A stretch of DNA of 37,865 bases, from assembly GCA_003252385.1 (NCBI GenBank), contig QKEH01000093.1, positions 1 through 37,865 on the forward strand, read 5' to 3'. Positions 219 through 37,865 of this stretch are shown piece by piece (position 1 is the first letter of the stretch; each line of letters opens with the position of its first letter). Both the position numbers and the translations under genes were made by a program. The DNA comes from Bacteroidota bacterium (GTDB lineage: Bacteria; Bacteroidota; Bacteroidia; Bacteroidales; UBA10428). Under the pieces are notes generated by a model. It was not told the origin of the DNA. It saw only the letters and a program-made list of their open reading frames with translations, and searched no databases.

Positions 219-3200
219 TCAGTTCGCTTTTAGAAAACGCCCCATGTAGGAAGCGTCTCCGTTGTAGAATTTGACCAGGTAAATACCGGGTTGAAACCGT
301 TCGGTTCCAATGGTATAGGTAGAGCCTGCCAAATTACCCAGTTGAACCTGATGGATCAGGTGACCGGTAACATCGTAAATGGATAGGGATCCTTTTGCAC
401 TGCCTGGTGCTGAATCGGGCAATTGGATGTGTAATTCAGAATCTACCGGGTTTGGGTAGATATACAACTCCCCTTCAACAATTCCCGACTGAACTTGTGC
501 ATTTTCCAGATCGGTGACCATACCTGACGACTCAACCACTCCAATATCCGGAGCCGCCCCTTCGGGAATCGGACGTCCGTGAATGTCGTATTGCAGCCCT
601 ACGTAGGTTCCCCCGTCAATACCCGGTGACTTGGCAAGCAGGGTGTAGTTTTTATTCGCCTGATCCTGAAACAGCGGATCCGAGCTTACCGATTTGTAAT
701 CGCTGTTCTGATAGCTTCGTAGCTCATCAATACTGCTGTAAACAATGTTATTGATCTGACAGAAATTTGATCGAATCGGGTAGTACAGGTTATGATCGGA
801 AGAGTAAACAACGGCATTACAGATTAAAGCACGATCGCTTTCCTGTGAAAGATAAAAGATATTATTGTATGCCAAGACATAGTCGCCGGTAAAGGTGATC
901 GCATCGCGGTTATTAATAAACAGATTATTTAAAACCATAGCTCCCAAACCATTACTGATGATATTCAGTCCCAAGGTATTGGATTCGAAGATACTATAGT
1001 TGACATCTACCTCGTCGGCTACAATAAAGCCTGCCTGTATGGTATTCGAGAAGGAACAATATTCCATCTGAAGGTAATCGACATCCAACGCACGGATACC
1101 ATAATGCCCCCCTTTAACACTACAATTGGAAAGCTGTATTCCCCGTGCCTTGGTATTGCTTAAATAAAAACCTCCCAACGAACCACTGGCCTGAATAGCT
1201 ATATCCTGTATTACAATGCGATCGCGATCCGATATACGTACTACATAACTGCCCGTTGTTGATGAAATAACTGGTGCCGCCCCCTGGCCATAAGCTCCCA
1301 CAATGATATTGTCAGCGTTGATATTCCAAACCGTAACCTCGGAGTGCGTACCCCTTTTCAATAAATACATATATCCGGACTGCAAACTCACCGAGCTCAA
1401 ATTGCTAAATGGATTTTCAAAGCTTCCATCGCCCTCTAAGGAGTTATCCGGATCAATGTAAACAATATTCTCAGCCGGAATGTAACGAATGGTAATTACC
1501 GCCTGATTGGCTTCCTGAGGGTTTCCGTTGTCGACCACTTCTACCGTTATCTGATGTTCCTGAGGAACCAACACATCTGCCACTTCTGCATTAACACGCA
1601 ACATACCGGTTCCGGGGTCAATGGCATAAAGTTCGTCTGCCGTATTGGCCACAATGGAATAAGTAATCTCATCTTCATCTGGATCGGATGCGGTAACAAT
1701 CCCCACTTCGGTATCACCCTCGGGAGATACCCGATAGATAAATTCCTGATCTTCAATCAAGGGAGCATGATTCACTACACTCTGATGCAATTGAACCTGA
1801 ATTACAGCTGTAGCACTTTGAACCGGGCTTCCATTATCCGTTACACGAACAGTGAGTGAATACGTCGGATTACCCGAGTATGGAATGGTATTGGTAGTAA
1901 AACGAAGATGACCGGCATTGTCAATGGAGAAAAGGCCACCCGTATTTCCCGATTCAATACTATAACTAATAGCCTGTCCATAATCCGGATCGTAGGCATG
2001 CAGGGTTCCAATTAACGTTCCGTCCTGTTCCCCTTCATTAACTATAAAAGTAACAGAGTTAATACGTGGCGGATTGTTGGTATAACCCTGCTGATCCATC
2101 AACAGAGCCGGAACCAGGGCCGAATCCACATATCGCTCCGGGTCAACACTACGGATATCGCCCGACTGATAAAAAAGAATCTTGGAATAGAAAGGTGGAA
2201 TGGTGGTAGATCCGGATACCTGATTTCCCTCCATATCGCGAAAAGTTGCACTGCCCAAATTAACCACACGTCTTTGCGCACTGAAATTGGTGAAAAATTT
2301 CACGAAATCCTCTTTGCTCACCTGTCCCGACACCTGACTGTACATAATTCCCTGAGGGTTAACCCGGCTATGCAGATCCGATGGCTGTGGCAGCACTTCG
2401 CCTCCATTGTATCGCATCTCTGCCAACGTAAAACTGTGATCAGCCTGCCAGTCCCAAACGTACTTTCCAATTACTGGTTCGGTCGAAAAGAACGGACTAG
2501 CCACCATATTGTAATCGTAGTAGAAATTATTCTGATCAATATACTGATTGGCAATTGCGGTGGTGGTATGCCGCAAATACAGCGAAGTACCCGCATTGTC
2601 GCCAAAGACAACTTTGTTATTCCTGATGGTATCCCGGTCGGCAGAGTACGTTACAATACCAATGGCCTGATCCTTTAAAAAAGCAGTACTAAAGATATTG
2701 GGTAAATGGTTGTGGGCGTTCACCACGTTGTTGTTCTTAAAACAGTTTTTATAGTTCCGGTTGGAATAAAAAGCCACGGATGTATTTTCGATGGAATTCG
2801 AATCGCAGATATAGGAGAGTGCCACCTCGTCCATATAGATTCCATGGGGATGTAATGCCAGCGTATTGATATCAAATCGGTTCCCGGCCGTTTTCGAATC
2901 CAGAATAATATTATTCTTTATGTAACGTCGCGTATCACTGTCCACATCGGAATTGCTGTAGAATGCACCACAATCGGCAACTGTTACCCCATAATCTTCC
3001 ACATAGTTATAACTGATACTGGCTCCGTTATTCTCCCTAAAGGTGTAGGTCTGAACTGCAGCCCCAACACTATCGAAATGGTTGTACTGAACGAAAGTTT
3101 CCCTTCCCATGGAATTATGGATGGAAATGGCACACCCCATTTTAAAATCGTAATTACACATCCCCACATGCTGCGTAGCAATCCGGCAAAACCGATTATT

Positions 3201-4235
3201 GCGAATCTCGAGGTAATCGTACATATTTATCCGCATTCCCATGGCACCACAATCGTGCACATAGTTGCGGTTAAAAACAATGTTGTCGGTTCGATAACAA
3301 CGGACAGCGCCCCCTGCGGTATACCGCAACTCACAATCGGTAATGGAGATATGATCGCTCTCACGCATTGAGATATGCCGGTAATTCGACATTTCGAACA
3401 CCAGGTTTTTAAACTGTATGTGCTCCGACTCATTAATCCCAATAATGGAATCCACCACGCTGAACTGAACATTATGGGACTCCAGATCCCCATCGTAGTA
3501 AATACGCAACATCCGGTTGCGAAAGGTCCAGTCTCCATTAGTTTGTAAATACTTGTCGCTGTTGGCAAGATAATAAGGTGTCTTTTTATCGGTTCGCGAA
3601 GGATATTCAATATCCGAGAAGTAAAGCGTATTAGAGGTATTTGAAGTTATTACCCGGGATTCCCACTGCCATAACACCGATTGAATAAAAATATAAGCTC
3701 CGGCATATTCATTACTTTGCCAATTTTGGCTGTAATCCGAAAGCTGTCGCGTAGAATTGCTTCCGGAGATGATGCGTTCTTCGCTTCGGGCAATATCGTG
3801 CCAAACACCATCCAAAAGTATTCCTCCGGGAACGTTAATATTTCCATGAGGAAAATCCTGGAGCACCCCAATAGAATGGATCGATCCATTTCTTGTAAAG
3901 CCTTCGAGAAGCTTACCTCCCGACAATACCGGCCGGGATCCGGAACCGTACGCATCAAATACTATCGGTTGCGAAGAAGTCGCCACCCGTTGATTGATCA
4001 TCAGATTTACTTCGTACCAAACCGAACCTCTTTCAAAAAGCACCTTATCGCCAGCGTGCATGGTATTGAGTAATTGCTGCAATTTCACCATACTCCTGAA
4101 TGGACTGCTGGCATTGGTTCCCGCATTGGCATCGTTCCCATTGGCGGACGAGAAATAATAGGTTGTTTGGCCTTGCACCCACAATGTACTTAACACAGCA
4201 ACCAGGCTGAGTAAATATCTAACGCTCAACTTCAT
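219..4235 (-). CDS. Secreted beta-helix/cadherin/beta-helix protein with T9SS type A sorting domain
   Basis: This 1338-residue protein has an N-terminal signal peptide (about residues 1-23, hydrophobic core LLSLVAVLSTLWV). Residues about 25-600 look like a right-handed parallel beta-helix: a start motif (YYFSSANGNDANAGT) is followed by many short repeats rich in Asn, Ile and aromatic residues, such as IRNN and ISYNYV. Residues about 722-820 and 824-918 are two cadherin-like repeats with calcium-type motifs (AYDPDYGQ, ASDPDEDE, VTDNGSP, VVDNGNP). A second beta-helix runs about 923-1235 and ends in the pattern KSPGIDGGT...APDIGVVE, known from Bacteroidota beta-helix proteins. The C-terminus (about 1255-1338, beginning YIYPNPVDSELHIQL) is a type IX sorting domain, so export to the cell surface or medium is expected. 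Enzyme activity cannot be assigned: polysaccharide lyase or adhesin-like binding are both possible. The gene stands alone and the ATG at 4235 directly precedes the signal peptide. Confidence 0.85.
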   Translation of the reverse strand: MKLSVRYLLSLVAVLSTLWVQGQTTYYFSSANGNDANAGTNASSPFRSMVKLQQLLNTMHAGDKVLFERGSVWYEVNLMINQRVATSSQPIVFDAYGSGSRPVLSGGKLLEGFTRNGSIHSIGVLQDFPHGNINVPGGILLDGVWHDIARSEERIISGSNSTRQLSDYSQNWQSNEYAGAYIFIQSVLWQWESRVITSNTSNTLYFSDIEYPSRTDKKTPYYLANSDKYLQTNGDWTFRNRMLRIYYDGDLESHNVQFSVVDSIIGINESEHIQFKNLVFEMSNYRHISMRESDHISITDCELRYTAGGAVRCYRTDNIVFNRNYVHDCGAMGMRINMYDYLEIRNNRFCRIATQHVGMCNYDFKMGCAISIHNSMGRETFVQYNHFDSVGAAVQTYTFRENNGASISYNYVEDYGVTVADCGAFYSNSDVDSDTRRYIKNNIILDSKTAGNRFDINTLALHPHGIYMDEVALSYICDSNSIENTSVAFYSNRNYKNCFKNNNVVNAHNHLPNIFSTAFLKDQAIGIVTYSADRDTIRNNKVVFGDNAGTSLYLRHTTTAIANQYIDQNNFYYDYNMVASPFFSTEPVIGKYVWDWQADHSFTLAEMRYNGGEVLPQPSDLHSRVNPQGIMYSQVSGQVSKEDFVKFFTNFSAQRRVVNLGSATFRDMEGNQVSGSTTIPPFYSKILFYQSGDIRSVDPERYVDSALVPALLMDQQGYTNNPPRINSVTFIVNEGEQDGTLIGTLHAYDPDYGQAISYSIESGNTGGLFSIDNAGHLRFTTNTIPYSGNPTYSLTVRVTDNGSPVQSATAVIQVQLHQSVVNHAPLIEDQEFIYRVSPEGDTEVGIVTASDPDEDEITYSIVANTADELYAIDPGTGMLRVNAEVADVLVPQEHQITVEVVDNGNPQEANQAVITIRYIPAENIVYIDPDNSLEGDGSFENPFSNLSSVSLQSGYMYLLKRGTHSEVTVWNINADNIIVGAYGQGAAPVISSTTGSYVVRISDRDRIVIQDIAIQASGSLGGFYLSNTKARGIQLSNCSVKGGHYGIRALDVDYLQMEYCSFSNTIQAGFIVADEVDVNYSIFESNTLGLNIISNGLGAMVLNNLFINNRDAITFTGDYVLAYNNIFYLSQESDRALICNAVVYSSDHNLYYPIRSNFCQINNIVYSSIDELRSYQNSDYKSVSSDPLFQDQANKNYTLLAKSPGIDGGTYVGLQYDIHGRPIPEGAAPDIGVVESSGMVTDLENAQVQSGIVEGELYIYPNPVDSELHIQLPDSAPGSAKGSLSIYDVTGHLIHQVQLGNLAGSTYTIGTERFQPGIYLVKFYNGDASYMGRFLKAN

Positions 4236-4660: not shown

Positions 4661-4701
4661 AAAGAAAAAGCTGCCTAAATTTCTTAGACAGCTTTTTCTT
4701 T
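4661..4701 (-). terminator. Intrinsic terminator of the rpoBC-DUF3467 transcript
   Basis: Arms of 18 bases (4661-4678 and 4684-4701) pair with a single G-U or mismatch around the 5-base loop ATTTC. On the minus strand the 3' side of the stem ends GCAGCTTTTTCTTT, giving a U-rich tail. The first base of the stop codon of the DUF3467 gene (4701-4703) lies inside the stem. The arms are A- and T-rich at their outer ends, so the hairpin could also stop transcription on the plus strand. Confidence 0.85.
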
Positions 4702-5021
4702 TATGCTTGTGCCGTAGGGCCTCCAAAATTGAGAGGAATATTGCCCCCCTCGCCTCCGGGTTCCTTTATAGTCCCATGAACGGCTTCATATTTAGCAATG
4801 TTATCTTTCAGCGCGGCCAAGAGTCGTTTTGCATGCGCCGGAGCCAGAATAATCCGCGATTTTACATCGGCTTTTGGCATTCCCGGCATAACGCGAACAA
4901 AATCCAGTACAAATTCCGAAGCAGAATGCGTGATGATAGCCAGGTTGGAATAGATCCCCTGTGCCACCTCTTCCTTCAGTTCAATATTTAACTGATTCTT
5001 ATTTTCGTTCCTTTCGTCCAT
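4701..5021 (-). CDS. DUF3467 domain-containing small protein
   Basis: The 106-residue protein matches what I recall of the DUF3467 family, which in Bacteroidota is often encoded right after rpoC. It has no signal peptide or membrane segment and is probably cytosolic. The core carries the phrase YSNLAIITHSASEFVLDFV and then the conserved stretch KSRIILAPAHAKRLLAAL. The C-terminal 20 residues are Gly/Pro rich and probably disordered. The start lies only 15 bases after the rpoC stop, and a strong terminator begins within the stop codon, so it is the last gene of the rpoBC transcript. The family's biochemical role is unknown to me. The location suggests a link to transcription, but that is inference from position only. 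Confidence 0.8.
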   Translation of the reverse strand: MDERNENKNQLNIELKEEVAQGIYSNLAIITHSASEFVLDFVRVMPGMPKADVKSRIILAPAHAKRLLAALKDNIAKYEAVHGTIKEPGGEGGNIPLNFGGPTAQA

Positions 5022-5036
5022 CTTTGCAACCCAATA

Positions 5037-9308
<4,272 letters not shown>

Positions 9309-9353
9309 GCGTTAAAAATTAATTCTGTTTACAATAAGAACCATTACTTGTTA

Positions 9354-12300
9354 CTACACCAGGTTGATGCTCAGTCCAAGGCCTCTAAGTTCGTGCAACA
9401 GCACGTTCAGCGACTCAGGAATACCGGGTTGCGGTAACGGTTCCCCTTTAACGATTGCTTCATAGGTTTTCGCACGGCCAATTACGTCGTCCGATTTTAC
9501 AGTCAGAATTTCCTGAAGGATGTTTGCAGCACCGAATGCCTCAAGTGCCCACACCTCCATCTCACCAAAACGCTGACCTCCAAACTGAGCTTTACCACCC
9601 AACGGTTGTTGTGTAATAAGTGAGTATGGTCCAATGGAACGGGCATGCATTTTGTCATCGACCATGTGTCCAAGTTTCAGCATGTAGATTACCCCTACGG
9701 TTGCCGGTTGATCGAAACGATCTCCGGTACCGCCATCGTAAAGGTAGGTTTTACCGTATCTTGGAATGCCTGCTTTATCGGTATACTCGTTGATTTCATC
9801 GAGTTTGGCTCCGTCGAAAATGGGAGTGGCAAATTTGGTTCCCAGTTGTTTACCGGCCCAGCCCAGAACAGTTTCGTAAATTTGACCGAGGTTCATACGC
9901 GAAGGCACACCCAACGGGTTCAGTACAATATCCACAGGAGTTCCATCTTCGAGGAACGGCATATCTTCCTGACGTACAATCTTGGCAACAATACCTTTGT
10001 TACCGTGTCGACCTGCCATCTTATCTCCCACCTTCAGCTTCCGCTTTTGAGCAATGTAAACTTTGGCCAATTGTACAATACCTGCAGGCAATTCATCGCC
10101 AATAGTAATATTGTATTTCTTGCGTTTGTAAATGGCATCAATCTCTTTGTACTTTATGATATAGTTGTGTATCAACTTATATATCATATCGTTTTTAGAC
10201 TTATCCGTTGTCCATTTACTCGGATTGATATTGAAATAGTCGATATCCTGCAGGATTTTTTGAGAGAACTTGGTCCCTTTGGCAATGATATCAACGTTCA
10301 AATAGTCCTTAACCCCTTGCGATGTTTTACCATTGGTCAGCGCAAAAAGTTTGTCTACCAACATACCTTTTAGTTCGCCTACCTGGCGGTTGAACTCTTC
10401 TTCAATTTTATCCAGAATAGGCTTGGTAGCAGCTTTCAACTTCCGGTCTTTAACCGAACGGGAGAAAAGCTTTTTGTCAATGACCGTACCAAACAACGAT
10501 GGAGAAGCTTTTAGTGAGGCATCCTTCACATCGCCAGCCTTGTCGCCAAAAATGGCACGCAGCAGTTTCTCTTCGGGCGATGGATCGGATTCTCCTTTAG
10601 GTGTGATTTTACCAATCAGGATATCGCCGGGCACCACATTGGCTCCAATACGTATCAGACCGTTTTCATCGAGGTCTTTGGTGGCTTCTTCGCTTACGTT
10701 GGGAATATCGGCAGTGAGTTCCTCCAAACCACGTTTGGTATCGCGTACTTCCAACAGGTACTCATCGATGTGTACCGAAGTGAAAATATCTTCGCGAACC
10801 ACACGCTCCGAAATCACAATCGCATCCTCAAAGTTATATCCTTTCCAGGGCATGAATGCCACCATCAGGTTACGGCCAAGGGCAAGTTCGCCCTTCTGAG
10901 TAGCATAACCTTCCGTAAGGATATCGCCTTTTTTAACCTTGGTGCCTTTTGAAATTATCGGCTTCAGGTTAATGCATGAATTTTGGTTGGTTTTACGGTA
11001 TTTGGGGAGTTTATAGCGCTTAAGGTCGCCCTCGAAACTTACAAACTTTTCCTCATCGTCCAATTCGTAGCGAACTACAATCTCGTTGGCATCCACATAT
11101 TCTACCACACCTTCGCCTTCGGCTACCACCAGTAGTCGCGAGTCGCGCACTACGTTGGCCTCAATACCGGTACCTACAATCGGTGCTTCGGGCTGAAGCA
11201 GCGGCACAGCCTGGCGCATCATGTTCGATCCCATCAAAGCCCGGTTGGCATCATCGTGTTCCAGGAACGGAATGAGCGATGCTGCGATGGATGCAATCTG
11301 ATTAGGTGCAACGTCCATCAAATGAACCTCTTCAGGGGTTGCCAACGGATAATCTGCCTCCAGTCGCGATTTGATTTTCGGATTTACAAATTTTCCATCA
11401 TTGTGAATGGGCGCATTCGCCTGAGCAATTATTTTTTCTTCTTCTTCCTCTGCACTTAAATAGACCACGCCTTCGTTGGTCAGATTTACCTGCCCGCTTT
11501 CCACGGTCCGGTAGGGTGTTTCAATGAATCCCAGTTCGTTGATCTTGGCATACACGCACAACGAGGAAATAAGACCAATGTTAGGGCCTTCGGGGGTTTC
11601 AATGGGGCACAAACGTCCATAATGGGTATAATGTACGTCGCGAACCTCAAAACCTGCGCGTTCGCGCGAAAGACCTCCTGGTCCCAATGCCGACAACCGA
11701 CGTTTGTGGGTCATTTCGGCCAAGGGGTTGGTCTGATCCATAAACTGCGAAAGCTGGTTGGTTCCAAAGAAGGAGTTGATTACCGAGGATAGCGTCTTGG
11801 AATTGATCAGATCAATTGGCGTAAAAACCTCATTGTCGCGAACATTCATGCGCTCACGTATGGTACGGGCCATACGGGCCAAGCCAACACCGAACTGGTT
11901 GAACAACTGTTCACCCACAGTGCGAACCCTACGGTTGCTCAGGTGATCGATATCGTCCACGTCAGTTCTCGAATTGATCAGCTGAATCAGATATTTTATG
12001 ATTTCAATAATATCTTCTTTGGTCAGCACTTTAACATCCATATCGGTTTGCAAACCCAGTTTGCGGTTGATCCGATAGCGTCCCACGTTACCAAGGTCGT
12101 AACGTTTATCTGAGAAAAACAACTTATCAATCACATCGCGAGCCGTGGCCTCATCGGGGGGCTCTGAGTTACGCAATTGACGGTAAATGTGCAGTACGGC
12201 CTCTTTTTCGGAGTTACAGGGGTCTTTCTGCAAAGTATTATATATGATTTCGAAATCAGCCTGGTTCAGGTTTTCCTTATGAAGCAGTATGGCCTTCGTT

Positions 12301-28785: not shown

Positions 28786-31700
28786 ATGCGAGTATATCAT
28801 GTTATTTCGTTGCTTATAGCATTCGTTACCTGTTCACAAGCACAACAATACTCCTTCACCACACTCACCACTGCCAACGGACTATCCCAGAACGATGTAA
28901 ATAGTATCCTGCAAGACAGCCGGGGGTTTATGTGGTTTGGCACCTACGATGGTTTGAATAAGTACGATGGCTACGAGTTTATTGCCTATCAGACCATGCA
29001 AAACAATACCAACTCGCTATGCGGCAATCTGATTCATACTTTACGGGAGGGGGAGAACAACGAAATGTGGATCACCACGGAAAACGCCGGTTTATCCCGG
29101 CTAAATTTATTAACCAACGAAATCATCAATCTGGGGAATTCGGAGGCCACACCTCATCTGTTCCAAACCAATCGGCTGGAAGATATAGAATACTTTCCGG
29201 GAGGATATATATGGTTGGAAACCCAAAGAGGTATTTCCTTATTAAAATACAACAGCGATGGAACATATTGGTCTAAGGATATAACTCCACAAACCGATAT
29301 GCTGGGCCAGCTGTATTCCCAACGCCGGATGCGAACCCTGTTTAAAGACAACGACTCCTGTATCTGGCTCGTTACTCATGGAGGTATCGGTGTACTTCAT
29401 CTGAACCAACAACACGCCATCACCCGGATGGACGAGATTCAATTCTACGACAATAAATTTGAATGCGTCATTCATTGTCCCGAGGGCTATCTGATTGGAG
29501 CCATATCGGGGTTGTACTTTCTAACCTACACAGATCGAACAAGAAACAGGTATCGGGTTGCCAAACTGGATACTATAGTTCCCACCTGCATGTGCGTTGA
29601 TAATTTTGGCAAATTGTGGGTTGGAACCACCAATGGCATCTATGTGTACCATTATACCCCGGGTACTACCCGTCCCTACACCCTGAACAACCATTTTACC
29701 ATGGAGAACAGTAATTTGGCTTCCCATAAAATCCGCTGCATATACAAAAGCCAAACGGGGATACTTTGGTTTGGAACCAATGGAGGAGGAGTAGCCTTGC
29801 TGGATCAAAACAAACCCAACTTCAGGCATTACCCGGTAATTACAGATAAAAACCAAAAACATTATTCCATTAAGTGTTCCGCTATTTATGAAGACCAGCG
29901 GGGCAACCTGTGGATTGGATCCGACAATCACGGACTATTTTTTTTACCGAACACCTCCAACCGGCAATATTCCCAGGAGTGCTTTAGGTTCCAACCCAAT
30001 GAAAAATCGCTGTGGCATGCTGTGTACTTTATTCAGGATGTGCATACCAATCAGGGAAATTTTTTGTGGGCCGGATGCAGTTTCAACAATGTTTTGGTAG
30101 AAATTGACCTAAAAAAATGGGGTACTCCGCAATTTATGCATCCTATTGAAGGACTGCCCGAGATGTGCTTCCAAATGACTCAGGGCCGCGACAGCCTGAT
30201 TTGGATTGCTTCGTATTGGGGTGGTTTGTACCGATACGACCCCTATTCGGAACTAAATGAATTTGACCGATTTCTGGAAACTAACTCCGATTTACCATCG
30301 AACATAGTACGCAGTGTGCTCGAAGATGATGCGGGGCGGATATGGGTTGGAACCAGTCATGGACTATGCCGTATCGACAAAAAAGATAAAAGAAATGAGC
30401 AGTTGCGGATGAAAATTTTCACAGCAGAAATGAATACCCCCGGGAGTTTAAGCCACAACTACATCCTACCCATCCGCGAAACTTCTGATAACACGATATG
30501 GATTGGCACCATGGGAGGAGGACTCAACAAGTACCAGCCTCCCAGCGATTCAACCCTTGAGGGGTTTGTTAGCTATACCACCGAACAGGGCCTTCCGAAC
30601 AATGTCATTAAGGAAATTATCGAAGATAACAACGGCAATTTGTGGCTGGCCTCCAATAAGGGACTGACCCGGTTCAACCCAAAAACGGAAAAAATCAGTA
30701 TCTACGATAAGAACGATGGACTGCAGGATAATGAGTTTAGCGAGCTTTCCGGATGTAAATTAAAAAGTGGCGAAATTCTTTTTGGAGGAGTAAATGGTTT
30801 CAATGCATTCTTTCCGGAAGAAATTAAAGAAGACACTACTCTTCCTATTGTAGCTTTTACGCATATCGATATACAGGGTATTGAAATTAATATTCATGAT
30901 ACCATTCACGGAAGAGAGCTGTTAACCCGGCAACTCAACGAAACCCAGGAATTGCAACTGCGATACAACGAGAATAATTTCTCGGTTCACTTTAGCGGAT
31001 TACACTACTCCTCCCCGTTGAAAAACCAATACCGATATTTCCTGAAAGGATTTGATAAACGGTGGAATTCCACGAATGCCCTTGCACGTTTCGCCAAATA
31101 CACCAATTTGGAGCCCGGACAATATACCCTGCAAGTACTGGCCTCGAATGGCAATAATAACTGGACCAGCAAGGCCAAAGAGATCCGAATCATCATCCGG
31201 CCCCCCTTTTGGAAGACATGGCTCTTCCGACTACTTCTTTTACTGTTTACTGCCCTGGCACTGTTGTTTGTTTATCGATTCCGGATCCGTCAGCTAACCA
31301 GGGAATTGCAGCGACGTAAAGAGCACGAGCGTGTTCTGACCCTGGCCAAAACCAAGGCGGAAGAATCGGACAGTTTAAAAAGTGCTATAATTGCCAATCT
31401 TTCGCATGAAATACGAACTCCGGTGAATGGAATATTTGGATTTTCAGAGCTGCTTTCCTTGGAGAACCTATCGACCGAGAAACGCCAGCATTACAGCAAA
31501 ATTGTTCGGCAGCGCTGTAACGATTTAACTAAAGTACTGGATTCGGTATTATTGCTTTCCTCGGCACAAAGCGGCACCCTGAAAGCCGCCCTTTGGGATC
31601 GACCTTTAGGGACCGTGCTCACAGTTGTCCTGGCTGAAGCTCGGGATGTTTTATCTGCCAAAAAGAAAAATGTCCGTATTACCTTACAGGATACTGGCAC

Positions 31701-32064
31701 CGATTTAAAACAAATCGTACTCGCCGACCATCATAAGATCCACTATGTACTATCCAGCCTGCTGGACAACGCTATTAAATTTACCGAAAAGGGAAATATC
31801 GAAGTTTGCTGCAAGATTGTGGATGGGATGATTGAATTTTCTGTACGTGATACCGGCATTGGAATTCCCGAACAGTATCAGAAACTCATCTTCGAAGAAT
31901 TCCGACAAACCTCCATTGGCCTGTCGCGCCAATATGGTGGTATTGGACTGGGACTCTCGCTTTGCAAAACCTACGTAATTATGATGGGAGGGAAAATATG
32001 GCTGGACTCTGTTGAAGGAGAAGGCTCTATATTCTACTTCACTGTACCCTATCGACCTGCATAA
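28786..32064 (+). CDS. Sensor histidine kinase with reg_prop/Y_Y_Y periplasmic domain, no receiver or AraC domain
   Basis: This 1092-residue protein has a signal peptide (1-19). It is followed by a two-propeller periplasmic sensor built from reg_prop repeats (about 25-675; e.g. DSRGFMWFGTYDGLNKY, DDAGRIWVGTSHGLCRI, DNNGNLWLASNKGLTRF). A Y_Y_Y domain (about 725-805, ending VLASNGNNNWTSKAKEI) leads to one membrane span (about 810-832). The HisKA domain has the phospho-acceptor His874 (SHEIRTPVNGIFGFSELL). The ATPase domain has N-box DNAIKFTEKG (994), G1 DTGIGIP (1022) and G2 GGIGLGLSLCK (1051). It ends directly after the ATPase domain. In typical Bacteroidota hybrid sensors a receiver and an AraC helix-turn-helix follow; both are absent. 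The partner regulator is not in the window. Reg_prop sensors often respond to glycans, but the ligand here is unknown. Confidence 0.93.
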   Translation: MRVYHVISLLIAFVTCSQAQQYSFTTLTTANGLSQNDVNSILQDSRGFMWFGTYDGLNKYDGYEFIAYQTMQNNTNSLCGNLIHTLREGENNEMWITTENAGLSRLNLLTNEIINLGNSEATPHLFQTNRLEDIEYFPGGYIWLETQRGISLLKYNSDGTYWSKDITPQTDMLGQLYSQRRMRTLFKDNDSCIWLVTHGGIGVLHLNQQHAITRMDEIQFYDNKFECVIHCPEGYLIGAISGLYFLTYTDRTRNRYRVAKLDTIVPTCMCVDNFGKLWVGTTNGIYVYHYTPGTTRPYTLNNHFTMENSNLASHKIRCIYKSQTGILWFGTNGGGVALLDQNKPNFRHYPVITDKNQKHYSIKCSAIYEDQRGNLWIGSDNHGLFFLPNTSNRQYSQECFRFQPNEKSLWHAVYFIQDVHTNQGNFLWAGCSFNNVLVEIDLKKWGTPQFMHPIEGLPEMCFQMTQGRDSLIWIASYWGGLYRYDPYSELNEFDRFLETNSDLPSNIVRSVLEDDAGRIWVGTSHGLCRIDKKDKRNEQLRMKIFTAEMNTPGSLSHNYILPIRETSDNTIWIGTMGGGLNKYQPPSDSTLEGFVSYTTEQGLPNNVIKEIIEDNNGNLWLASNKGLTRFNPKTEKISIYDKNDGLQDNEFSELSGCKLKSGEILFGGVNGFNAFFPEEIKEDTTLPIVAFTHIDIQGIEINIHDTIHGRELLTRQLNETQELQLRYNENNFSVHFSGLHYSSPLKNQYRYFLKGFDKRWNSTNALARFAKYTNLEPGQYTLQVLASNGNNNWTSKAKEIRIIIRPPFWKTWLFRLLLLLFTALALLFVYRFRIRQLTRELQRRKEHERVLTLAKTKAEESDSLKSAIIANLSHEIRTPVNGIFGFSELLSLENLSTEKRQHYSKIVRQRCNDLTKVLDSVLLLSSAQSGTLKAALWDRPLGTVLTVVLAEARDVLSAKKKNVRITLQDTGTDLKQIVLADHHKIHYVLSSLLDNAIKFTEKGNIEVCCKIVDGMIEFSVRDTGIGIPEQYQKLIFEEFRQTSIGLSRQYGGIGLGLSLCKTYVIMMGGKIWLDSVEGEGSIFYFTVPYRPA

Positions 32065-33602: not shown

Positions 33603-36600
33603 TTATTGTTTTACAATACGTTGGGTTATGTATTGGTTGTCCTGCTCAATACTCAGGATGTACATACCCGATTTAAGTCCTGACACATCGACCGAACCAT
33701 GTGAACCTTCAATCACCCAATCGGACACAACACGTCCGTAGATATCGCGAACGGTAATATGAGCAACTGCTTCCGAGGGCAACTCTATCCAAAGCATGCC
33801 ACTGGTCGGATTCGGATAAACGGCCAAGGCATCGGGTAGGTGCGTTTCCTTAAGTTCCGAATAGGTTCTTACCATAACTGCCTTCCAGTTGGCCGGATCG
33901 TTACCAAACTCATTATCCGCGACACGTACCAGCGTATATCCATAACCATCTGCAACCGGATTCCACGGTGCTTTATCGCTATAGCTTACGGCATCCACCA
34001 GTACGTAGGGTGGCCGCTCTATTTTATTAGGATCATTGATAATTCCCGGGCGATACAATCCAATGGTTTCACCCCCGTTCGAAAGACTGCCCTCCATGGA
34101 GAATACTTGAATGCCCGTCTCCAAATGATACATTCTCCTAAAAGCTGTATCAGATACCTGGGCTTCGATAATATAGAGTGAATCGCCTGATGCAAGGGAA
34201 ATTTCTTGTGGAAATTTAAAGTCAGCTCCCTCCACTTTCCAGGTATATTGAGGTTCGTCGGGGTGAGAGAAAGATACGGTTTCTGAAGAAATATTTTTCA
34301 ATTGAAGATATTCCCCGGCACTATCTGCCGGATGATACATGATTTGGGATATAACCACCGGCCCCACAGCAGGAAGGGTATTGCCCGTTCCAAGACTATT
34401 ATTTTCCTGAGCCACAAAGAAGTCTTCGCCCTGGCTATTGGTATGCTTACCAAAACTTACTGAGGGCATAGCTGCCCCAAAATTAACTTTTGACGAATAC
34501 CCGGTTAGTAGCCCCGCTTCCGTTGCCGAGGTAAGACATAACTCTTCTCCATCGGGATCGACATGGAAGCCTGCATCGAAATCGTTGGAAGAGAATAGGC
34601 GATATCCACCCGCCGAAATAGTGGTTCCTGCAGGAATCTGCCACTTTTTAGGTTGTTTCCTATCGTCGCTCAGGAACCAGCCACCTATATCGGCTGCAGA
34701 CGATGTGGGATTGTACAGTTCCACCTGATTCAGAATGGGCAACTCGGCATACGACAAGACTTCGGTTATTTCAATCGGGGCAAGGGTCAATTCGGGATCG
34801 TCGACACCGGGCGAACCATGCATGTTGGTGGAGGAACGCCAGTATTCCGACTTATCGGGATCAGTGGCAACATTCTGGGTTGCCGGAACCAGCGAGTAAC
34901 CATAACCATCAGCCAACATGGGCCAGTTAGCTCCATCCGAGTAGTCCAGCTTCATTGCAATGGATCCTTCACGGTCTTTCAACACCAACTGCTCACCGGA
35001 GTTTTTCAGGTTACCCAGGTAGAAGGCATTGGGCGCAAAACCATAACGCAACTGAAAGGTGTCCGCATCGGAGGCAATCACAAAAAAGTTCCCGGGTTGC
35101 AGATGCGTTTCCGGGAAAGTATAATCGATCCCTTTCGTAAAAGAGCATGCACTAAGATCGATACTGTTGCTCCCTGTATTTTTCAATTCTATGAATTCCA
35201 AATCGGACGAGCGTCCCGTAGAATCGACCGAAGGATTATAATGAATCTCCGTGATAGCCAGGCCCGGTATTTCCTTTAGTACATCCACACCTAATTCGTA
35301 TAGCGGACTCCATTCGTTTCCATTCTTCACCCTTGCCTTAATATCCATACCATGGTTCATAGTAATCAGGCCATTGTTGGACACACTAATGGCACTGGAT
35401 TTTACAGCTCCACCCACGGCACGCGGGTCGCTTCCATCGGTAACATAATAGATGGTGCCATTGCTATTGGTATGGGTAAAAAGAAGAGGTGTACCCGGGT
35501 CAACCGTAATGGATTTTTTTTCTATGGGCATGCCTTTTTCCAGTATTTGAGGAGCCTCCAATGTGGGGGCATAACCCCATTCGGAAAATAGTTGCACCAC
35601 ATAATCGGTGCGTAAAGGTACATAGTCTTCCAGAAGATGGTTAACGTTTTGTTCCCAATCAGCACGAGTGGGTACATTGGATAAGTCGGACCCAGATGTA
35701 ACCCACCACGACCAGCGTGCTGCCTCAGCAATTACCGGATTGTAGATTTGCTCCTTCCTTTTTTCCAACATGGCAGCAACGGTTTCCGGTGTAAACAGTC
35801 CACCCTCGCTGAAAAACTTATACACCCGGTCGGAAAATTTTAATCTATACTCATTGTTACTGAGCAAAGCCCGGTGAATGGTGAGCGGATTAAAGGCTGA
35901 AAACTGCTGCGAATACCACGATGCATCCAAACCATTGATGTAGGTATTATCAGAAGAATAGTACATCGATTTTTCCATATCATGGACCAACCATTTAAAA
36001 CCATCCGGATTGGTACGGTTATAAATGCCAATAAAGTTATTCGGCCGCACCATCTCACCCCACAAACCTGGCCAGATCACACCGGGGCCATCTTCACTTC
36101 CGGTATAGAAGCTAATAAGCAGGTAGTCGATCAGGTTCTCCACATCCAGCAACTTTTCGTAGGTAGCATTGGGTGTGCCATCGGCATTCATGCCCTGAAT
36201 ACGGAAGTAGTCTGCATTGGACGAAAAACCGGAAATCATAGCGTTCCATAGCCGCTGGGCAGCATCCAAATTCCCACCCGATGCACCAATCAACAAGTCG
36301 TTGGGTGGATCAATAACATTCTTTTGTGGCTTGATTACATCGTAATCTTGTGCACTATACCCCATGTATTCTTGGGCAAACTTCTCGTCGGCTCGTTCCT
36401 GAATCTGGTACAACCCCCAATACACTCCATTCAGATACAAATGACAATAGTAGCTGCGGGTATGGTCGTGACCCATTTCCCCTTGCACATCACGGGCATA
36501 TATTTCCTTCAGAAAGGTAACTGTAGATGGATCTTCCCCAGATTGCCAGGAGGAATTCTGGGCAGTGCGGAAATCGAGATGATCGTATTGATTTAATCCA

Positions 36601-37865
36601 TCGCCTCCAAATACCGGGTAATCGAGTTTCGCTGGACCATAATCGTCCTTAAAAAGGATGCGGAACGAGTGCTTGGGATTCCGCGGCAAACGACTGTACC
36701 TGCCCCGCATACGAATGGCTGCATCACACTGGAAGTCGGCTCCGTTAGGATCAATCAACTCCACAGAAACCGGGCGCTCCCAGCCTTCTTTAAGTGCATT
36801 CATGTAAATACCGGAGGATGCATCGAAGAGGTCATTATATTCAAATACCAGCGAATAGGTAGGTATTTCCAATAAAGCATCGTCCATTAAGTCGGCATAG
36901 GTTGACGATTGGGTGATTTCCTGATTCATTAAATAGGCTATACTCTGAGGAGCTGTATAACCCGGCCAATCAAAAGTAGCACGTGGAGCCCTCCACATTC
37001 CACCGGGAGCATCCTGCTCGCTTACGGCATCAATAAAAATATAGCTCTGGGTAGCCACTTTGCTCATGCTATAGCCTGGCGCTTCCACCGCAGCACGTAT
37101 TACCACCCCAGGTGTCCGTCCACCCCGATTTAAGGTACTTGCAGGATTAATAAATACTGTTGCCGGAGCAGTTGCTTCAACACGAGTACCTGAAAATAAA
37201 GGATTGCTGCCATCCAGGGTATACCATATTGTGGCACCGGAATGAATGGAGGAAAGAGTCAGGTTAAAGGCTTCCTTGTAGATACCCCGTTTGCTAGAGA
37301 AATCGGGCTTATAAGCTTGTAACTCACCTTGCTCGCCAGAAAAAAAGGCGACTCCAAAGTACGAAGGTCTGGTACGGGCCAGGTTATATTCTGAGAACCA
37401 TCCCAGTTTCCCCTGACGGGTTCCACCATCGTTGTCAGTAATTTGCACATCAAAACCTATGGGCAGCTTATCTACAACGGAACTAAGTGTCAATGTCGAA
37501 AACGGAATGGCAATCTCGTAGCACACCGTATCGCCCGACTGGCTCTGTGCCATAGTAACTCCGTTCGTAGTACCATGTGCTATTTCATACACCGTGGCAT
37601 CGTTATAGCGAATCAGGTAGTAAAAGTCATCACTCTGATAGCTACCCGGTTTATCGTTGTTAACATCTAAATAGATTTCAATTCCGTCATCCAAACTACG
37701 ATCGCTTTGGTTGTCATTCCGCCACTCGTTATCGCGCACCATGGCAAACAGGAACAAGGTATCGGCTGTCCATGCTACCTTAAACCTACCACTCAAATCA
37801 GCTGTAGAAGAAACTGTCCCATAATTCAAAGTTGCCAGGGGCTGATAGTTGGCCGAATCCCAGAT
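33603..37865 (-). CDS. CotH-kinase-family secreted protein with T9SS sorting domain (5' end cut by the window)
   Basis: The frame is open to the last base of the window (reading IWDSANYQPLATLNYG at the edge), so the true start and signal peptide lie outside; 1420 residues are visible. Domains in order, numbered from the first visible residue, are: a CBM9-like sugar-binding domain (about 1-180, LDDGIEIYLDVNNDKPG); a chitobiase/HEX C-terminal-type module (about 190-280, ATIWYTLDGSNPLF); a CotH-kinase domain (about 325-760, with YYCHLYLNGVYWGLYQIQER and LVHDMEKSMYY); a second HEX-type module (about 780-865); lamin-tail-like domains (about 868-975, 1028-1110 and 1168-1280); and a type IX sorting domain (about 1345-1420, VYPNPTSGMLWIELP). 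CotH proteins are atypical kinases in spore coats and effectors, but the Bacteroidota forms are uncharacterised. It leads an operon with the lipoprotein and DUF2490 genes. Confidence 0.85.
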   Translation of the reverse strand: MWDSANYQPLATLNYGTVSSTADLSGRFKVAWTADTLFLFAMVRDNEWRNDNQSDRSLDDGIEIYLDVNNDKPGSYQSDDFYYLIRYNDATVYEIAHGTTNGVTMAQSQSGDTVCYEIAIPFSTLTLSSVVDKLPIGFDVQITDNDGGTRQGKLGWFSEYNLARTRPSYFGVAFFSGEQGELQAYKPDFSSKRGIYKEAFNLTLSSIHSGATIWYTLDGSNPLFSGTRVEATAPATVFINPASTLNRGGRTPGVVIRAAVEAPGYSMSKVATQSYIFIDAVSEQDAPGGMWRAPRATFDWPGYTAPQSIAYLMNQEITQSSTYADLMDDALLEIPTYSLVFEYNDLFDASSGIYMNALKEGWERPVSVELIDPNGADFQCDAAIRMRGRYSRLPRNPKHSFRILFKDDYGPAKLDYPVFGGDGLNQYDHLDFRTAQNSSWQSGEDPSTVTFLKEIYARDVQGEMGHDHTRSYYCHLYLNGVYWGLYQIQERADEKFAQEYMGYSAQDYDVIKPQKNVIDPPNDLLIGASGGNLDAAQRLWNAMISGFSSNADYFRIQGMNADGTPNATYEKLLDVENLIDYLLISFYTGSEDGPGVIWPGLWGEMVRPNNFIGIYNRTNPDGFKWLVHDMEKSMYYSSDNTYINGLDASWYSQQFSAFNPLTIHRALLSNNEYRLKFSDRVYKFFSEGGLFTPETVAAMLEKRKEQIYNPVIAEAARWSWWVTSGSDLSNVPTRADWEQNVNHLLEDYVPLRTDYVVQLFSEWGYAPTLEAPQILEKGMPIEKKSITVDPGTPLLFTHTNSNGTIYYVTDGSDPRAVGGAVKSSAISVSNNGLITMNHGMDIKARVKNGNEWSPLYELGVDVLKEIPGLAITEIHYNPSVDSTGRSSDLEFIELKNTGSNSIDLSACSFTKGIDYTFPETHLQPGNFFVIASDADTFQLRYGFAPNAFYLGNLKNSGEQLVLKDREGSIAMKLDYSDGANWPMLADGYGYSLVPATQNVATDPDKSEYWRSSTNMHGSPGVDDPELTLAPIEITEVLSYAELPILNQVELYNPTSSAADIGGWFLSDDRKQPKKWQIPAGTTISAGGYRLFSSNDFDAGFHVDPDGEELCLTSATEAGLLTGYSSKVNFGAAMPSVSFGKHTNSQGEDFFVAQENNSLGTGNTLPAVGPVVISQIMYHPADSAGEYLQLKNISSETVSFSHPDEPQYTWKVEGADFKFPQEISLASGDSLYIIEAQVSDTAFRRMYHLETGIQVFSMEGSLSNGGETIGLYRPGIINDPNKIERPPYVLVDAVSYSDKAPWNPVADGYGYTLVRVADNEFGNDPANWKAVMVRTYSELKETHLPDALAVYPNPTSGMLWIELPSEAVAHITVRDIYGRVVSDWVIEGSHGSVDVSGLKSGMYILSIEQDNQYITQRIVKQ

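What the first reader, a model, noticed from the sequence alone, without database searches (positions are those of the whole stretch)
219..4235. Two beta-helices joined by cadherin repeats in one T9SS cargo protein
The protein carries two separate right-handed beta-helix domains (about 25-600 and 923-1235). Each begins with a similar start motif (YYFSSANGNDANAGT and VYIDPDNSLEGDGSFENP). Two cadherin-like repeats sit between them. The doubled helix start suggests duplication or fusion of a lyase-like module, and the calcium-type linkers suggest a long, rigid surface or secreted rod. The pairing of an enzyme-like fold with adhesion repeats is of interest. No function can be assigned.
Basis: partly seen in the sequence, partly recalled or inferred. 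Interest (0 to 1): 0.55.

Follow-up and report, generated by a model that had tools for sequence, protein, structure and literature searches.

The report
Modular twin-helix protein, probably sugar-cutting
A secreted bacterial protein joins a beta-helix that probably cuts sugar chains to a second, probably non-cutting beta-helix through two cadherin domains, and many of its relatives sit among genes that build slime polysaccharides, which suggests that these bacteria trim their own coat with it.

Summary
All 9 strong helix-1 copies of the family (window included) keep a separate helix 2. A recent helix duplication and PL6-type lyase chemistry are not supported. Helix 1 resembles GH141 glycosidases: over 20 sequences the only acids kept 20 of 20 in residues 110-716 are D421 and D469, which align with the catalytic pair D523/D564 of BT1002. 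Helix 2 keeps no acid in its barrel and is probably a binding or anchoring part. The module cadherin-helix 2-tail is re-used: 22 strong copies in 12 of 23 family genomes, 9 with this head, 13 with others (pectate-lyase-like, PL14, other helices). One gene is a clear head/tail mosaic. An exopolysaccharide priming transferase lies within 20 kb of 13 of 22 copies, against 3 of 112 other T9SS-tail genes. But none of the 3 copies in the window's own genome shows this, and the window's copy is an orphan between rpoC and hydrogenase genes. Best reading: a surface-delivered exopolysaccharide-cutting enzyme with exchangeable heads; substrate and role are inferred.

The parts
219..4235 (-). whole gene, 1338 aa, ATG to stop
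4170..4235 (-). signal peptide, residues 1-22 (by eye: basic start, hydrophobic stretch)
   Evidence: sequence; no predictor run
3915..4169 (-). N-terminal cap of helix 1, residues 23-107; similar to the cap of GH136 lacto-N-biosidases
   Evidence: profile E 7.7e-23 to 7v6m, cap only
3453..3914 (-). inserted domain, residues ~108-261, with the G-E/D-W motif near its end; mostly pLDDT under 50
   Evidence: same place as the inserted beta-sandwich 109-295 of GH141 BT1002 (PMC10154630, passages)
2436..3452 (-). helix 1 core, residues ~262-600
2973..2975 (-). codon of D421 (motif D-C-G-A-F-Y), aligned with nucleophile D523 of BT1002
2829..2831 (-). codon of D469 (motif H-G-I-Y-M-D-E), aligned with acid/base D564 of BT1002
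2160..2330 (-). beta-domain after helix 1, residues ~636-692
   Evidence: strands
1788..2081 (-). cadherin domain 1, residues ~719-816
1482..1772 (-). cadherin domain 2, residues ~822-918
657..1469 (-). helix 2, residues ~923-1193; no acid kept in 19 or more of 22 copies between residues 940 and 1130
528..653 (-). choice-of-anchor Q-like stretch, residues 1195-1236 (24.5 bits, just under the cut-off of 25)
222..461 (-). T9SS type A sorting domain, residues 1259-1338

Best explanation
A T9SS-secreted, probably surface-held polysaccharide-cutting enzyme. Shown by computation: helix 1 has the fold and the conserved Asp pair of GH141 glycosidases; helix 2 has a helix fold without a conserved acid pair in its barrel; the cadherin-helix 2-tail part recurs behind different heads, several of them like polysaccharide lyases; the family is strongly linked to exopolysaccharide (EPS) priming genes. 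Inferred: helix 1 hydrolyses a glycosidic bond by an Asp nucleophile (D421) and an Asp acid/base (D469); the cadherins are a spacer; helix 2 binds the polysaccharide or holds the protein at the surface; the usual substrate is the cell's own EPS, with the head chosen to fit the EPS, so that the enzyme trims, releases or remodels the coat, much as RbmB does for Vibrio polysaccharide. The window's copy lies outside an EPS cluster, so for it the EPS role rests on its relatives alone.
For: Foldseek best match of the N half is GH141 BT1002 (E 2.1e-8), VIA Z 26.3, rmsd 2.8 over 318 residues (AlgE6, RbmB and others are within 1 Z). A profile of 20 helix-1 sequences finds 9rx2 (1.7e-18) and BT1002 (4.6e-16), next match 6.8e-6. 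There D421 and D469 align with positions 528 and 569 of the 5mqp chain (that stretch i-E 6e-8), 41 apart as D523/D564 are (residues from PMC10154630 and PMC12786026, passages). They are the only acids kept 20 of 20 in residues 110-716. Other heads: 13 of 22 strong helix-2 copies. EPS linkage: 13 of 22 within 20 kb of PF02397 against 3 of 112 controls (Fisher p 6e-10); 11 of 17 when limited to genomes that gave controls. Neighbours scanned in four of the loci include WecG/TagA, EPS priming transferase and a Wzx-like protein. SprA, the T9SS translocon, is in the genome.
Against: The window copy lies between rpoC and hydrogenase-maturation genes, and 0 of the 3 strong copies of its own genome have PF02397 on their contig (contigs of 9, 20 and 38 kb). 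In all, 9 of 22 copies have none on their contig, 5 of these on contigs under 20 kb. Cases share descent, so the p-values are too small; by contig it is 9 of 19 against 3 of 87 at 15 kb. Identity to BT1002 is about 12-15%, the insert is badly modelled, and with the 9-sequence profile the stretch holding the Asp pair was not significant alone (i-E 13). No substrate is known.
Confidence: 0.53

Rival explanations
1. A surface glycosidase for food polysaccharides from outside (plant, algal or microbial matter), whose family happens to sit in variable genomic islands together with EPS genes.
For: GH141 members known so far act on pectin, xylan and fucoidan (PMC10154630, PMC12786026, passages). Other heads resemble pectate lyases and PL14. 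None of the 3 strong copies in the window's own genome has PF02397 on its contig, and the window's copy is outside an EPS cluster.
Against: Other T9SS-tail genes of the same genomes show little such linkage (3 of 112). No SusC/SusD pair was named among the neighbours scanned, but only 10 chosen neighbours of family loci were scanned.
Confidence: 0.27
2. A non-catalytic adhesin or rod: both helices bind matrix polysaccharide and the cadherins stiffen the rod.
For: Cadherins and two long helices; helix 2 shows no conserved acid in the barrel; the cadherins keep DxD.
Against: The Asp pair is kept 20 of 20 over sequences down to 17-21% identity, which is hard to explain without catalysis; at least 7 of the 13 other heads resemble named polysaccharide lyases.
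Confidence: 0.12
3. A PL6/PL31-type lyase.
For: PL6 structures match the helices well (Z about 24-26), and a two-domain PL6 enzyme is known (AlyGC; PMC6879350, passages).
Against: PL6 has a conserved Lys and Arg (PMC6879350); here the best K/R column in residues 262-560 is 14 of 20, at R437. PL31 was not tested.
Confidence: 0.05

Closest known systems
GH141 (BT1002, PDB 5MQP; Wf141 endo-fucanases; Xyn141E)
   Same: Beta-helix with a domain inserted between cap and helix; Asp pair at matching places; best Foldseek match
   Different: About 12-15% identity; here fused to cadherins, a second helix and a T9SS tail; many relatives near EPS genes
GH136 lacto-N-biosidases (LnbX, 5GQC)
   Same: The N-terminal cap is clearly alike (profile E 3.3e-22)
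   Different: The catalytic half of the helix gives no significant alignment
Two-domain PL6 alginate lyases (BcAlyPL6 7DMK, AlyGC 5GKQ)
   Same: Two parallel helices in one chain; helix 2 here best matches the SECOND helix of 7DMK (Z 25.9, rmsd 2.7, 268 aligned)
   Different: Head lacks a conserved Lys/Arg pair; here two cadherins lie between the helices
RbmB, Vibrio polysaccharide lyase
   Same: Secreted beta-helix enzyme encoded in the biofilm gene cluster and acting on the cell's own matrix (PMC11637428, passages); fold matches both helices (Z 25.7 and 21.9)
   Different: Lyase chemistry; solved chains of about 350-370 residues, i.e. without a second helix or cadherins

Membership tests
GH141 | catalytic Asp pair (BT1002 D523, D564) | tested here: met
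   D421/D469 aligned (stretch i-E 6e-8; stretch i-E 13); 20 of 20 conserved
GH141 | beta-sandwich inserted between cap and helix | tested here: inconclusive
   an insert of ~150 residues lies at the right place and its end aligns, but the model there has pLDDT under 50
GH141 | sequence membership (CAZy family threshold) | tested here: inconclusive
   profile hit to 5mqp E 4.6e-16, to 9rx2 1.7e-18; no CAZy model at hand
GH141 | glycosidase activity | not testable with these tools
   needs an assay
GH136 | family-wide sequence match including the catalytic region | tested here: inconclusive
   cap only; NF047897 49.4 bits against a cut-off of 2500, cap only; 6kqs E 0.015
PL6 | conserved catalytic Lys and Arg | tested here: not met
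   against PMC6879350 (passages)
T9SS cargo | C-terminal type A sorting domain | tested here: met
   TIGR04183 44.2 bits, cut-off 23; PF18962 45.3, cut-off 27
T9SS cargo | translocon in the genome | tested here: met
   SprA_N E 5.7e-173
cadherin | cadherin fold | tested here: met
   PF00028 76.7 bits, two stretches; Foldseek
cadherin | full set of calcium motifs (E, DxD, LDRE, DxNDN; motif names recalled) | tested here: not met
   DxD in both and NE/PE, but no LDRE and no DxNDN in residues 715-925

The most novel reading that the evidence does not exclude
EPS gene clusters of this Bacteroidales family carry a dedicated, surface-delivered depolymerase built as a cassette: a common cadherin-helix 2-T9SS tail that recognises or anchors to the coat, and a catalytic head that is swapped through the cadherin linker as the EPS changes, so that the coat and its own cutting enzyme evolve together.
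Probability: 0.3. Interest if true: 0.65.

Novelty: new variant of a known kind. Interest (0 to 1): 0.45.

Why it matters
If true, the head of such a gene would point to the chemistry of the EPS made next door, which is hard to read from glycosyltransferases, and the family would be a source of enzymes against defined bacterial slimes. It would also be a clear case of domain exchange through cadherin linkers in bacteria.

Tried and rejected
Internal duplication of the helix in this protein: not supported, though three relatives with other heads have a head cap like the helix-2 cap. PL6-type lyase: not supported. Recent foreign origin by base composition: nothing seen (gene GC 0.449, window 0.45). 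Pseudogene: the frame is open over 1338 codons and the Asp pair is kept. An EPS cluster beyond the window's left end: contig C26, whose last 144 bases equal the window's first 144, carries hydrogenase and hyp genes instead; the contigs were compared, not joined.

Literature searches: beta-helix + cadherin + T9SS + exopolysaccharide (0 papers); T9SS + EPS biosynthesis + glycoside hydrolase + gene cluster (2, not on this by title and start of abstract); parallel beta-helix + cadherin-like + Bacteroidetes + secretion (0); EPS cluster, endoglycanase and others (2, likewise). So nothing on this family was found in that open-access library, which lacks most subscription journals.

Rows left out: 4 of 116 control rows were family members and were dropped. 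The control rows were copied by hand, genomes G000-G014 only, from a listing that shows the best-scoring matches and is cut. Of 24 distinct helix-1 hits at E <= 1e-10 the 4 weakest (3e-15 to 3e-11) were not fetched, so '20 of 20' is of 20 of 24. My notebook says 13 genomes for the 22 copies; the right number is 12.

Several other beta-helix enzymes and tailspikes appear in the fold lists; a shared beta-helix says nothing about function.
Full report
WHAT IS THERE. The ORF at 219-4235 is on the minus strand, 1338 aa. Order: signal peptide (by eye), cap 23-107, insert ~108-261, helix 1 ~262-600, a beta-domain ~636-692, cadherins ~719-816 and ~822-918, helix 2 ~923-1193, a choice-of-anchor Q-like stretch, and the T9SS sorting domain. 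Upstream on the same strand lie a small ORF at 4701-5021 and rpoC/rpoB. Downstream the contig ends; the last 144 bases of contig C26 equal the window's first 144, and C26 carries CobW-type, AIRS-type, HypD and HypF genes and hydrogenase parts.

STRUCTURE. Two AlphaFold2 jobs with only 5 sequences each gave a half-good N half (pLDDT 61, pTM 0.69; the insert is unreliable) and a better C half (pLDDT 72, pTM 0.54; helix 2 82-92 in 18 of 19 ten-residue blocks over 926-1115). Foldseek puts GH141 BT1002 first for the N half; GH136, GH110, phage depolymerases, XylC and PL6 follow. VIA gives BT1002 Z 26.3, rmsd 2.8, 318 aligned, with AlgE6, RbmB and others within 1 Z, so structure alone does not choose the family. 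For the C half Foldseek's first 50 rows are cadherins, and VIA puts helix 2 on the second helix of the PL6 enzyme BcAlyPL6 (Z 25.9, rmsd 2.7, 268 aligned).

CATALYTIC RESIDUES. A profile of 9 helix-1 sequences without the cap finds BT1002 at 1.4e-5, but the stretch with the Asp pair is not significant alone (i-E 13). A profile of 20 sequences finds 9rx2 at 1.7e-18 and BT1002 at 4.6e-16, the next being 6.8e-6, and there the stretch with the pair has i-E 6e-8. In both alignments D421 falls on position 528 and D469 on 569 of the chain (counted by me on the printed alignment), 41 apart, as are nucleophile D523 and acid/base D564 of BT1002 (PMC10154630 and PMC12786026, passages read); the constant offset of 5 is taken as numbering of the construct. 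Over 20 sequences, 9 of the family and 11 distant ones at 17-21% identity (20 of 24 hits; the 4 weakest not fetched), D421 and D469 are the only acids kept 20 of 20 in residues 110-716. No Lys/Arg column of residues 262-560 exceeds 14 of 20, against the conserved Lys/Arg of PL6 (PMC6879350, passages). In helix 2, over 22 copies, no acid between 940 and 1130 is kept in 19 or more; the kept acids are D928 at its start and D1147, D1179, D1186, D1207, D1217, D1230 and E1235 at its end. I infer that helix 1 is a glycosidase and that helix 2 is not an enzyme of this kind; another chemistry in helix 2 is not excluded.

RELATIVES. In the 23 genomes of the family there are 13 helix-1 hits at E <= 1e-10: 9 strong (E < 1e-200; window included), all in ORFs with a strong helix-2 hit, and 4 weaker ones (5e-44 to 1e-34) without a helix-2 hit on their contig. 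None of the 9 has one continuous helix. Of 22 strong helix-2 copies in 12 genomes, 9 carry this head. Of the other 13, 5 have a PelZ-related head (below the family cut-off), 1 a Pel9A-like and 1 a PL14 head (both over the Pfam cut-off), 5 have heads with helix-type hits but no name, and 1 head was not scanned because my fetched stretch cut it. In 198 genomes drawn over the order, 9 have a helix-1 hit and 16 a helix-2 hit at E <= 1e-10, and the two lie in one ORF only in the window's own genome (at most 6 and 11 candidates per genome were scored).

EXCHANGE OF PARTS. The copy G002:C20 has a head 48-51% identical to the window's group (window, G002:C77, G006:C92b) and 30% to G006:C92a, but a helix 2 that is 71% identical to G006:C92a and 35-40% to the window's group. 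The two tandem copies G010:C114a and b share 71% in the head but 42% in helix 2. The simplest reading is that head and tail have been exchanged, with the cadherin linker between them; no formal recombination test was run.

GENOMIC SETTING. Ten chosen neighbours in four loci were scanned: three WecG/TagA/CpsF, an FkbM methyltransferase and one EPS priming transferase over their cut-offs; GT4, GT2, Wzx-like and two further priming-transferase matches below theirs. Test: within 20 kb of a PF02397 hit, 13 of 22 copies against 3 of 112 other T9SS-tail genes (Fisher p 6e-10); at 15 kb 11 of 22 against 3 of 112; at 10 kb 8 of 22 against 2 of 112; by contig 9 of 19 against 3 of 87 at 15 kb. Limited to genomes that gave controls: 11 of 17. 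By genome fraction about 0.9 of 22 would be expected. Against: 9 of 22 copies have no PF02397 on their contig, among them all 3 of the window's own genome; 5 of the 9 contigs are under 20 kb. Two of the 9 have a listed PF13579 glycosyltransferase at 5.6 and 8.3 kb (no control made for that). The copies share descent, so the p-values are too optimistic.

HOW IT MOST LIKELY WORKS. T9SS export (SprA present), the tail holding or releasing the protein at the surface, helix 1 cutting a polysaccharide by the Asp pair, cadherins as spacer, helix 2 as binder or anchor. For copies near EPS genes the nearest working comparison is RbmB, encoded in the V. cholerae biofilm cluster and contributing to dispersal (PMC11637428, passages). 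Steps shown by computation: fold, conservation, recurrence, linkage. Steps inferred: activity, substrate, binding by helix 2, role in the window's organism.

Noticed in passing
33603-37865 (- strand): A second T9SS cargo in the window: CBM9, CotH kinase, three lamin-tail stretches and a sorting domain; its frame runs off the window's right end.
   Followed up: no
28786-32064 (+ strand): Large sensor kinase whose middle part (458-636) also matches the PorZ family model, below its cut-off; perhaps a beta-propeller sensor.
   Followed up: no
L037 (G002:C20) 7064-11143: Mosaic gene: head of one paralogue group, helix 2 of another.
   Followed up: partly
L036 6131-14501; L038 4650-12963: Tandem pairs of twin-helix genes close to EPS genes; in G002 the contigs C20 and C77, each with one copy, share a 65-base end.
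   Followed up: partly
PDB 9rx2: A solved 'parallel beta-helix repeat protein' matches helix 1 slightly better than BT1002 does (1.7e-18) and its C-terminus also matches the helix-2 end; I do not know its function.
   Followed up: no
L041, L042, L052: Heads of these module genes carry a cap that resembles the helix-2 cap (i-E 4e-13 to 2e-16), unlike the window's head; possibly an older helix duplication there.
   Followed up: no
4701-5021 (- strand): Small ORF of 106 aa between this gene and rpoC, not identified.
   Followed up: no
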